Both the position numbers and the translations under genes were made by a program. Positions 21,446 through 24,010 of a stretch of 64,000 bases of DNA are shown piece after piece. Origin of the DNA: Candidatus Nitrosacidococcus sp. I8 (GTDB lineage Bacteria > Pseudomonadota > Gammaproteobacteria > Nitrosococcales > Nitrosococcaceae); NCBI RefSeq assembly GCF_945836005.1, contig NZ_OX241534.1, positions 930,001 through 994,000 on the forward strand, in the 5' to 3' direction. How positions within the stretch are numbered: position 1 is the first letter of the stretch; each line of letters starts with the position of its first letter. Below the pieces are notes generated by a model, which saw only the letters and a list, made by a program, of their open reading frames with translations, ran no database searches and was not told the DNA's origin.

Positions 21446-21633
21446 TTTAATACTCTATTGAAACTAATTTAGATAATTGTAACAGAAGATAAGGAGCTTT
21501 AACGGTAGAAAACATGGAAACAAAAGGCAGGTTAATACAGTTATTTAATAGATTATAGAACAAGACTCTGCTAAAAATTATAAAATAAATATACAGTTAA
21601 CCATTTGATATTAGTTATATTTGTATCTTATAA

Positions 21634-22809
21634 AATAGTAAATATTGTGATGAATTACGTGGGGGGATGGATGCTTCCCAATATAAGGGCTATGTCCTTA
21701 CCTTATTGTTTGTAAAATATATTTCTGACAAATATAAAGACGATCCCTATGCCGCAATTGCCGTCCCCAAAGGGGCTTCCTTTGGTGATATGGTAGAACT
21801 CATTGGGAATAGTGAGATTGGAAACAAGATCAACAAGTAAATCCTCAATCCAATTAAAGAAGCCAATCAGCTAAGTGAATTCCCTGATTTCAATGATGAA
21901 AGCAAACTGGGGAAAGGTAAGAATTTGGTAGATACGGTTTCTAACCTAGTCGGAATTTTTAACGACAGTAAACTGGATTTTGCCAAAAATACTGCCGATG
22001 GCGATGATATTTTAGGGGATGCCTACGAGTATTTAATACGAAATTTCGCCACTGAATCTGGAAAAAGTAAGGGGCAGTTTTATACCCCGGCAGAAGTCTC
22101 AAGAATTTTAGCCACCGTAATTGGCATCAGACCCGATAATACCACTCCTCAAACTACAGCTCATGACCCTGCCTGTGGGTCAGGATCTTTATTATTAAAA
22201 GTGGCTACTCAGTCGGGCAAGCAAATCACGCTTTATGGTCAAGAAAAAGAAACTGCTACCGCAAACCTTGCCAAAATGAATATGATCTTGCATCACAATC
22301 CCACCGCTGAGGTGGTGGCAGACAACACCCTTTCAAGACCATTTTATCAGGAAGAAGATGGATCGCTGAAAAGATTTGATTATGTGGTGGCTAATCCCCC
22401 CTTTTCCTTAAAAAACTGGAGCAACGGGATTAATCCACAACAGGATGAATTCAATCGTTTTGACCTTGGTATACCCCCGGATAAAAATGGCGATTATGTT
22501 TGGTTACTACATATTATTAAAGTCATCAAATCCACCGGAAAAGCTGCCGTGGTTTTACCCCATGGAGTTTTATTTAGAGGAAATACAGAAGGGGCAATTC
22601 GAAAAGAAATCCTCAAAAAAGGCTATACCAAAGGAATCATTGGCTTGCCTGCTAATTTATTTTATAGCACAGGGATTCCTGCCTGTGTGATTGTGTTGGA
22701 TAAAGAAGATGCACTACAGCGGAAAGGAATCTTTATGATAGATGCCAGTAAAGGTTTTGTGAAAGATGGCAATAAAAACCGCTTACGGAAGCAGGATATC
22801 CGAAGGAAA
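21634..22809 (+). pseudogene. hsdM: Type I restriction methylase HsdM remnant
   Basis: HsdM methylates adenine as part of a type I restriction complex. The frame can be followed from KYCDELRGGMDASQYKGYVL (21640 onward), which corresponds to an internal N-terminal region of HsdM, so the real start is gone. An in-frame TAA lies at 21838-21840, followed in the same frame by ILNPIKEANQLSEFPDF and the methylase core: GQFYTPAEVSRIL, motif I DPACGSGSLL and motif IV YVVANPPFSL. Similarity stops near KNRLRKQDIRR (about 22805). No hsdS or hsdR is present. The gene is truncated at both ends and interrupted. It points opposite to its neighbours and ends about 67 bp from the 3' end of a tRNA gene, a common integration site. 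Confidence 0.9.
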
Positions 22810-22875
22810 AGCTTTAATTTAGCTAAGATCTTAGAGAATATTTTTAAAGGCAGGCGTATCTATCCTCATTTCATG

Positions 22876-23197
22876 TGGTGCCCGGGGCCGGAGTCGAACC
22901 GGCATGGGGTTTCCCCCGAGGGATTTTCATACCTACTACAACTTTCGTTGCTATATATCTTAGATAGCTCCGATATATATTTGTGGTCTGGACTTTCTCT
23001 TTACCCTACTATGTTTCATAGTTTAGGCAGGAGCCGTTAAGTCTCTACACTTTCCTTAAAAAGGCTTAGCTCGGGATTACCACCATCCATATTATGCTGA
23101 GGCTTCCCCGAATTTGACTCCATTCACACTAGATGTTTCCAGTCTAGGTGCTCAAACTTATTAAGTCCCTTGCGTCTACCTATTTCGCCACCCGGGC
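22876..23197 (-). tRNA. tRNA-Leu (UAA), interrupted by a group I intron
   Basis: Exon 1 (23197-23163, 35 nt) runs from GCCCGGGTGGCGAAATAGG to the anticodon base U34; exon 2 (22927-22876, 52 nt) starts AAAATCCCTCGGGGG and ends with encoded CCA. Joined, they make an 87-nt class II tRNA with paired acceptor arms GCCCGGG and CCCGGGC, anticodon stem AGGGA-CTTAAAA-TCCCT (anticodon TAA) and T arm CCGGTTCGACTCCGG. It is the last of three tRNA genes after pgsA, the leuZ position of E. coli. Confidence 0.95.
22928..23162 (-). ncRNA. Group I self-splicing intron in tRNA-Leu(UAA)
   Basis: The 235-nt intron sits between U34 and A35 of the anticodon, the site used by cyanobacterial and plastid tRNA-Leu introns, and ends in G (22928). 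The conserved core elements occur in order: P (AATTCGGGGAAGCC, 23114-23101), Q (AATCCCGAGCTAAGCC, 23078-23063), R (GTGTAGAGACTTAACGG, 23050-23034) and S (AAGAGAAAGTCCAGACC, 23001-22985). The R and S arms give the P7 guanosine-binding helix, and UUGAGC near the 5' end can form P1 with the exon's CUU. No homing endonuclease ORF is present. The subgroup is probably IC3, inferred from the site and size. Confidence 0.93.
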
Positions 23198-23205
23198 TTG
23201 TAAAT

Positions 23206-23279
23206 TGGAGGCTGGGGTCGGATTTGAACCGGCGTCCACGGCTTTGCAGGCCGCTGCATAACCCCTCTGCCACCCAGCC
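23206..23279 (-). tRNA. tRNA-Cys (GCA)
   Basis: A 74-nt tRNA. The acceptor GGCTGGG pairs with CCCAGCC, the discriminator is U, CCA is encoded, the anticodon loop CTGCAAA reads GCA, and the T arm contains GGTTCAAATCC. It corresponds in position to cysT of E. coli, between tRNA-Gly and tRNA-Leu. Confidence 0.97.
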
Positions 23280-23317: not shown

Positions 23318-23393
<76 letters not shown>

Positions 23394-23446: not shown

Positions 23447-24010
23447 CTAGTACTCTCCAGTTCGTGCCAGTGCTGCCCAAGCTGCACTAAAATATATTAA
23501 CATAGAACCTAAGGTAAGAATAGCAGATATATATAATAACATTAACCCAATATCCCATACTGAGATGGATCCTACCGAATTTCGATATAAAAGTAGGGAA
23601 ATCGCAATCATTTGAAAGGTGGTTTTAAATTTACCTAACTTAGAGACAGCAACCGTATCACGCATCCCCATGCTAGCCATCCATTCACGTAAAGCAGATA
23701 CTAAAATTTCTCTACCTACAATAATCATGACTGAAAGTGCCATCAGGGTGGAAGGATAGCTTTGTAGAATCAGTATCAGGGATACCACTACAATAAGTTT
23801 ATCTGCTACTGGATCTAAAAAAGCACCAAAAGGTGAAGTCTGTTGCCATCTTCTTGCTAAATAACCATCTAACCAATCTGTAATCGCAGCAAAAATAAAC
23901 AATGCAGCACAAATTTCTCGAGTATTAGGAAGGTAAAAAATAACCACCAAAGCCGGAATAGCGATAAGACGAAGGATAGTGATTAAATTAGGAATCGTAT
24001 AGATAGGCAT
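23447..24010 (-). CDS. pgsA: CDP-diacylglycerol-glycerol-3-phosphate phosphatidyltransferase
   Basis: PgsA makes phosphatidylglycerol phosphate, the committed step to PG and cardiolipin, in the inner membrane. The 187-aa protein carries the full CDP-alcohol phosphotransferase motif between residues 45 and 70 (DWLDGYLARR, then G62, D66 and D70) and several membrane helices. It begins MPIYTIPNLITILRLIAIP, typical of PgsA. It lies 88 bp after uvrC and before the tRNA cluster. Confidence 0.97.
   Translation of the reverse strand: MPIYTIPNLITILRLIAIPALVVIFYLPNTREICAALFIFAAITDWLDGYLARRWQQTSPFGAFLDPVADKLIVVVSLILILQSYPSTLMALSVMIIVGREILVSALREWMASMGMRDTVAVSKLGKFKTTFQMIAISLLLYRNSVGSISVWDIGLMLLYISAILTLGSMLIYFSAAWAALARTGEY

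What the first reader, a model, noticed from the sequence alone, without database searches (positions are those of the whole stretch)
22876..23197. Group I intron in the anticodon loop of tRNA-Leu(UAA)
The tRNA is split after U34 by a 235-nt intron with recognisable P, Q, R and S elements and terminal G. Introns at this exact position are classic for cyanobacteria and plastids; in a gammaproteobacterial pgsA-tRNA cluster one is unexpected and points to horizontal transfer or independent persistence. It contains no endonuclease gene, so it depends on self-splicing and vertical inheritance.
Basis: partly seen in the sequence, partly recalled or inferred. Interest (0 to 1): 0.7.

Follow-up and report, generated by a model that had tools for sequence, protein, structure and literature searches.

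The report
Self-splicing intron in bacterial leucine tRNA
The only tRNA found for the UUA codon in this acid-tolerant ammonia-oxidising bacterium is split by a well-preserved self-splicing RNA intron; the intron is ordinary in itself and less unexpected than thought, but close relatives of it carry their own DNA-cutting gene and sit in the same tRNA gene of bacterial viruses, which may explain how this supposedly immobile intron spread.

Summary
Confirmed. tRNA-Leu(UAA), window 22876-23197 (-), is split after U34 by a 235-nt group I intron (22928-23162) with intact P1-P9a, the U-G splice-site pair and a terminal G. It is the only UAA tRNA-Leu found in the closed genome of 'Candidatus Nitrosacidococcus urinae' I8. 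The interpretation needs changing. It is not unexpected: all 6 Nitrosococcaceae genomes have it behind pgsA-tRNA-Gly-tRNA-Cys, 27 of 369 sampled Gammaproteobacteria (23 families) have one at this site, and Beggiatoaceae cases are published. The gamma introns form a clade (99-100% support) apart from all cyanobacterial ones, so a recent cyanobacterial transfer is not supported. This copy has no endonuclease gene, but about a dozen gamma relatives carry a ~154-aa HNH endonuclease antisense in the P6 loop. Phage genomes carry tRNA-Leu(UAA) genes with the same intron at the same site, often with an HNH gene inside or beside it; five of them fall inside the gamma clade. Best reading: an inherited, endonuclease-free member of a mobile family shared with phages. 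The window's intron is a new member of a known kind; armed, phage-borne tRNA-Leu introns are the surprising part. Splicing, endonuclease activity and direction of transfer were not tested.

The parts
22876..23197 (-). tRNA-Leu(UAA) precursor gene, 322 nt, the only UAA tRNA-Leu gene found in the genome
   Evidence: ARAGORN intron mode; own-genome searches
23163..23197 (-). 5' exon, 35 nt, ending CUU (C32 U33 U34)
22928..23162 (-). group I intron, 235 nt, ends in G
   Evidence: Rfam RF00028 65.2 bits; ARAGORN; own covariance model 207.7 bits (this sequence was in the model)
22876..22927 (-). 3' exon, 52 nt, starts A35 A36 A37 A38, encodes CCA
23151..23165 (-). P1: exon CUU plus intron AA paired with the internal guide UUGAG; [quoted passage not shown]
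   Evidence: structure; invariant in 23 of 23 relatives
23030..23121 (-). P3 (23121-23116 with 23035-23030), enclosing P4 (23111-23107 with 23075-23071), P5 and P6
23048..23069 (-). P6, with a closed loop of a few nt; this is where the HNH gene sits in armed relatives, and here it is empty
22991..23043 (-). P7 guanosine-binding helix (23043-23040 with 22994-22991), enclosing P8 (23027-23004); one P7 pair shows U-A to C-G covariation among relatives
22938..22979 (-). P9 (22979-22952) and P9a (22951-22938), with P9.0 ACC/GGU
23206..23279 (-). tRNA-Cys(GCA), next gene upstream in the cluster
23318..23393 (-). tRNA-Gly(GCC)
23447..24010 (-). pgsA, head of the pgsA-Gly-Cys-Leu cluster
   Evidence: same order in most gamma relatives

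Best explanation
This is a working group I ribozyme of the tRNA-Leu(UAA) family (most likely subgroup IC3) in the native gammaproteobacterial gene of the pgsA-tRNA-Gly-tRNA-Cys-tRNA-Leu cluster. The precursor folds so that the 5' exon end CUU pairs with the intron's guide sequence (P1, U-G at the cut). A free guanosine bound in P7 attacks after U34, then U34 attacks after the terminal G, joining U34 to A35 and releasing 235 nt; normal tRNA processing does the rest. Because no other UAA tRNA-Leu was found, growth should depend on this splicing. The intron was in the common ancestor of Nitrosococcaceae and has since been inherited without an endonuclease. It belongs to a gamma clade that also holds HNH-armed chromosomal introns and phage-borne armed tRNA-Leu introns, so the family probably spread between hosts by endonuclease-driven homing, with phages as plausible carriers, and this copy is an unarmed, domesticated member. 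Shown: structure, position, apparent single copy, distribution, tree, armed and phage relatives. Inferred: splicing, essentiality, homing, direction of transfer.
For: Rfam hit; ARAGORN boundaries; covariation over 23 relatives, all core helices, 0/500 shuffles; independent fold z -3.0; only UAA tRNA-Leu found. All 6 family genomes split, while the sister family has an uninterrupted tRNA in most of its 57 genomes; same pgsA-Gly-Cys order in all six. Family introns one group once rogue rows are dropped (74/97), gamma clade 100/99 and 99/99 with phages. Armed relatives: HNH ORF antisense in P6, PF13392, phrog_10822 4e-49, pN 0.22 against pS 0.81, 55 of 55 pairs; decayed copies. Phage tRNA-Leu introns.
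Against: No RNA data: splicing is not shown. Support for the six family introns as one group is only moderate, and in trees with long-branched rows they scatter within the gamma clade. A tree with the family introns next to the cyanobacterial ones is not rejected (p 0.24). No armed intron was found in this family, so its own armed ancestor is conjecture.
Confidence: 0.88

Rival explanations
1. Recent horizontal transfer of a cyanobacterial tRNA-Leu(UAA) intron or locus into this lineage.
For: Same insertion site, homologous core and similar sequence blocks in cyanobacteria.
Against: Cyanobacterial introns form one side of a branch (100/99 to 100/100) with no gamma intron inside, apart from a contaminant contig. 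Exons are host-like (AGGGACUU/AAAAUCCCU against CGGACUU/AAAAUCCG). Gene order is gammaproteobacterial, never cyanobacterial.
Confidence: 0.05
2. Strictly vertical inheritance from a common ancestor of Gammaproteobacteria or of all Proteobacteria, with many losses and no mobility.
For: Constant site and gene order; gamma and alpha introns largely in separate clades.
Against: Patchy: 27 of 369 genomes, not found in the 57-genome sister family. Armed versions under purifying selection. Phage introns inside the gamma clade. Some tRNA-Arg(CCU) introns sit among alpha tRNA-Leu introns.
Confidence: 0.2
3. The gene is a dead pseudogene and UUA is read some other way.
For: No transcript data.
Against: Core fully conserved and covarying, exons fold perfectly, no replacement UAA tRNA found, kept in all 6 family genomes.
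Confidence: 0.02

Closest known systems
Cyanobacterial and plastid tRNA-Leu(UAA) group I introns (subgroup IC3; Anabaena type)
   Same: Same tRNA, same U34-A35 site, same core blocks and size, no ORF
   Different: Separate clade with a long dividing branch, different P3 and exon sequences, different gene neighbourhood
Interrupted tRNA-Leu(UAA) of Beggiatoa BOGUAY and Thiomargarita nelsonii (PMC4853749, citing MacGregor 2013)
   Same: Gammaproteobacterial tRNA-Leu(UAA) with a putative group I intron; three genomes of family f33, possibly Beggiatoaceae, have homologous introns
   Different: Those authors did not determine structure, type or relatives of their tRNA introns
Azoarcus tRNA-Ile(CAU) and Agrobacterium tRNA-Arg(CCU) introns
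   Same: Small ORF-less bacterial tRNA group I introns, related core
   Different: Other tRNAs; inserted after base 36 instead of 34; mostly separate clades
Synechocystis tRNA-fMet intron with I-Ssp6803I (from own knowledge)
   Same: A bacterial tRNA group I intron carrying a homing endonuclease
   Different: That enzyme is of the PD-(D/E)XK type; the armed tRNA-Leu introns here have an antisense HNH gene in P6. A PDDEXK_5 protein was seen here in a tRNA-Arg(UCU) intron
Phage group I introns (Hausner 2014, PMC3984707)
   Same: Group I introns with HNH endonucleases in phage genomes
   Different: All introns in bacteriophages known to that review were in protein genes; those here are in phage tRNA-Leu genes

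Membership tests
Group I intron | Covariance-model match over the whole core | tested here: met
   RF00028, 65.2 bits, positions 1-253 of 253
[quoted passage not shown]
   U-G in 23 of 23
Group I intron | P3-P8 and P4-P6 domains with P7 guanosine site, supported by covariation | tested here: met
Group I intron | Terminal G before the 3' splice site | tested here: met
   window 22928
Group I intron | Self-splicing with guanosine cofactor | not testable with these tools
   needs RNA
tRNA-Leu(UAA) U34-A35 intron family | Insertion exactly between anticodon bases 34 and 35 | tested here: met
tRNA-Leu(UAA) U34-A35 intron family | Homologous core with cyanobacterial members | tested here: met
   the pattern matches both groups; alignments and trees
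Subgroup IC3 | No P5a-d extension (PMC11835236), short P6, P9/P9a | tested here: met
   the subtype models themselves were not run
Recent cyanobacterial transfer | Intron nests within cyanobacterial introns | tested here: not met
Mobile (endonuclease-armed) group I intron | Homing endonuclease ORF in or beside the intron | tested here: not met
   none in this copy (P6 loop of a few nt, no ORF); present in relatives

The most novel reading that the evidence does not exclude
The textbook 'ancient, immobile' tRNA-Leu(UAA) intron has a living mobile form: an HNH-armed intron carried in phage tRNA-Leu(UAA) genes that homes into bacterial tRNA-Leu(UAA) genes. The endonuclease-free introns of Nitrosococcaceae and other gammas would be domesticated remains of such invasions.
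Probability: 0.5. Interest if true: 0.8.

Novelty: new member of a known kind. Interest (0 to 1): 0.58.

Why it matters
How tRNA-Leu(UAA) introns came to be scattered over bacteria and plastids, by descent or by transfer, has been argued since 1990, hampered by the lack of any mobile form. Endonuclease-armed copies in gammaproteobacterial chromosomes and in phage genomes, at the same base, and an intron-bearing tRNA-Leu(UAA) in an isolated phage of a laboratory bacterium, make mobility directly testable. It also shows that routine tRNA annotation can miss an essential tRNA: ARAGORN in its default mode skips this gene.

Tried and rejected
Recent cyanobacterial origin: rejected on tree, exons and gene order. 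An intact backup tRNA: not found. An endonuclease remnant in this intron: none, the P6 loop is a few nt. Two genome-contig loci called gamma are doubtful: L129 ('Tatlockia' MAG) has cyanobacterial exons and intron and is probably contamination; L157 is labelled Klebsiella but looks mis-binned. Long-branched rows (L282, L268, L285, L244 and f33) pulled family introns about in the first careful tree, so it was rebuilt without them. Viral hits L312 and L313 (one phage type) were not confirmed as tRNA introns. MacGregor 2013 (PMC3697557) was not in the library. A pattern search for tRNA-Ile(GAU) in the host found only a weak chance-like match, so the published count of 44 tRNAs could not be reconciled gene by gene.

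Full report
WHAT IS THERE. On the minus strand at window 22876-23197 lies tRNA-Leu(UAA). ARAGORN in its default mode skips it and reports only tRNA-Cys and tRNA-Gly of the cluster. In intron mode it reports tRNA-Leu(taa) with a 235-nt intron after U34, with the 5' exon at 23197-23163, the intron at 23162-22928 and the 3' exon at 22927-22876. Rfam's group I model matches over its full length, 65.2 bits, E 2.7e-14. I wrote out P1 to P9a on the window sequence; every pair is standard except one U-U in P5, and that position is unpaired in 20 of the 23 aligned sequences. Across 23 full-length gammaproteobacterial introns the structure pairs in 93.6% of cells, with 155 cells changed on both sides and none of 500 shuffles as good; sliding partners by one column drops pairing to about 44%. 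P7 has a compensated U-A to C-G change. Folding the precursor alone also returns most of these helices, z -3.0.

HOST AND COPY NUMBER. The genome is one closed contig of 1,848,551 bp, the published length of 'Candidatus Nitrosacidococcus urinae' I8, an acid-tolerant gammaproteobacterial ammonia oxidiser (PMC9574496). A tRNA scan of the genome found Leu anticodons TAG, CAA, CAG and GAG; a search with the spliced tRNA found only the two halves of this gene and other Leu tRNAs. So this split gene is the only source found for reading UUA and, by inference, splicing is essential. The published count of 44 tRNAs (Prokka annotation) may leave it out; I could not check that.

DISTRIBUTION. In the sister family of 57 genomes no tRNA-Leu(UAA) intron was found with a dedicated covariance model (R1), and the tRNA is mostly matched uninterrupted; the tRNA behind one R1 hit there (G020) was not identified, but that genome also has an uninterrupted match. 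In an even sample of 369 Gammaproteobacteria (GTDB sense) I count 27 genomes of 23 families with an intron at this exact site; a sample across the phylum adds 11 genomes outside the class. A scan of named species genomes returned only Cyanobacteria and Proteobacteria, almost all Gammaproteobacteria where classified. Prior art: interrupted tRNA-Leu(UAA) in Beggiatoa and Thiomargarita (PMC4853749). The review consulted lists cyanobacteria, alpha- and betaproteobacteria for bacterial tRNA introns (PMC4033280). The tRNAscan-SE 2.0 authors note that their program was not designed to detect group I introns in tRNAs (PMC8450103).

ORIGIN. In maximum-likelihood trees of the intron core the cyanobacterial introns are one side of a branch (100/99 to 100/100), and the gamma introns, including the window's, form another group (100/99; 99/99 with phages). 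With long-branched rows removed the six family introns form one group (74/97); with those rows included they scatter within the gamma group without support. Exons are host-type and the gene order is gammaproteobacterial, never seen in the cyanobacterial loci. So the locus is native and the intron is not a recent cyanobacterial import. A tree with the family introns as neighbours of the cyanobacterial ones is not formally rejected (p 0.24), so the deepest branching stays open.

THE ARMED RELATIVES. The window's P6 loop is a few nt and holds no gene. In about a dozen gamma genomes the same intron is 680-740 nt long because the P6 loop holds an ORF of about 154 aa on the opposite strand. It is an HNH endonuclease (PF13392 above its cut-off; phrog_10822 E 4e-49), with pN 0.22 against pS 0.81 and pN below pS in all 55 pairs, and an invariant C..C...LDH.NG...LCPNCH core. 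These tRNAs mostly sit behind pgsA-Gly-Cys, so they are chromosomal genes. Shortened or decayed versions (L133, L164, L279) look like stages of endonuclease loss. A search for the protein in viral contigs gave 244 relatives; of the best 80 loci, many of them near-duplicates, 47 also hold an intron found by model R1. In the 26 examined, ARAGORN in intron mode found a split tRNA at the intron in every one, most reported as tRNA-Leu(UAA) and most of the rest having the same U34-A35 exon ends under another anticodon label. The HNH gene lies antisense in P6, in sense at the 5' side, or just outside a short intron of about 200 nt. L314 (28-kb contig) has tRNA-Leu(UAA) and L311 (36-kb contig) tRNA-Leu(UAG), each with intron and antisense HNH. 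Neighbours include a phage DNA polymerase (L335, E 6e-136), an anaerobic ribonucleotide reductase (L311; reading) and phage tRNA arrays. The isolated Agrobacterium phage Atu_ph07 (MF403008) has tRNA-Leu(UAA) with a 278-nt intron where the record has no annotation, and a 735-kb phage genome has one of 205 nt. Five phage introns (L311, L314, L332, L335, L369) fall inside the gamma clade, L369 next to family f33 (98/86), while most phage introns form a group of their own. The gamma chromosomal HNH proteins form one clade (98/92) among phage ones.

MECHANISM. Shown: anatomy, conservation, apparent single copy, phylogeny, armed and phage-borne relatives. Inferred from established group I biochemistry: guanosine-started two-step splicing joining U34 to A35. 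Inferred from the comparison: the family spreads by endonuclease-driven homing into the conserved anticodon-arm sequence, with phages as plausible vehicles; the endonuclease decays; and the bare intron persists because its host cannot lose it without exact excision. The window's copy is at that last stage. Direction of transfer between phage and bacterium is not resolved.

NOVELTY. The window's intron is a new member of a known kind. The armed and phage-borne tRNA-Leu introns are, as far as the consulted literature goes, not described: Hausner 2014 (PMC3984707) states that all introns observed in bacteriophages were in protein genes, and two 2025 phage-intron papers searched for tRNA mention none in tRNAs. 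The library is partial, so this is a lead and not a proof of novelty.

Noticed in passing
L113, L115, L122, L125, L138, L149, L151, L157, L158, L175, L278 (L133 truncated; L164 and L279 decayed): HNH_3 endonuclease of about 154 aa antisense in the P6 loop of chromosomal tRNA-Leu(UAA) introns of Gammaproteobacteria.
   Followed up: yes
Viral contigs L311, L314-L316, L321, L330, L332, L335, L336, L346, L350, L357, L369, L377-L379, L394 and others; phage records L436, L439, L440 (Atu_ph07): Phage tRNA-Leu genes, mostly UAA, interrupted by R1-class group I introns at the same site, often with an HNH gene inside or beside them.
   Followed up: partly
L280, L281, L283, L285, L287, L288, L291, L292, L294, L307, L308: tRNA-Arg(UCU) introns after U34 in Gammaproteobacteria; L292 carries a PDDEXK_5 endonuclease in sense (PF11645, 4.7e-40), L287 a fragment.
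   Followed up: partly
L055, L060, L063 (Thr UGU); L066 (Lys CUU); L248 (Leu CAA): Group I introns in further gammaproteobacterial tRNAs: read by eye as tRNA-Thr(UGU) and tRNA-Lys(CUU) after base 36 and tRNA-Leu(CAA) after base 34.
   Followed up: no
L094, L109, L300: tRNA with anticodon CAU apparently split between U33 and C34, a site I did not find described.
   Followed up: no
L033 (G004, sister family): A tRNA-Leu gene, probably CAA, with an intron apparently between bases 32 and 33; the genome also has a separate uninterrupted match to tRNA-Leu(UAA).
   Followed up: no
L441, L443: Pelagibacter-type phages with R1-class group I introns splitting the capsid gene (94 and 99.5 bits).
   Followed up: no
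window 21620-22875 (+): Decayed type I restriction hsdM gene (N6_Mtase 3e-87) with an in-frame stop near 21840, its end running into the 3' end of the split tRNA; possibly the remnant of an element inserted at this tRNA.
   Followed up: partly
L129, L157: Probable mis-binned MAG contigs: 'Tatlockia' with a cyanobacterial tRNA-Leu intron, 'Klebsiella pneumoniae' with an armed gamma intron.
   Followed up: no
L032, L040, L041 (G014): Three strong group I intron hits (81-100 bits) on one 209-kb contig of a sister-family genome, not in tRNAs; host genes not identified.
   Followed up: no
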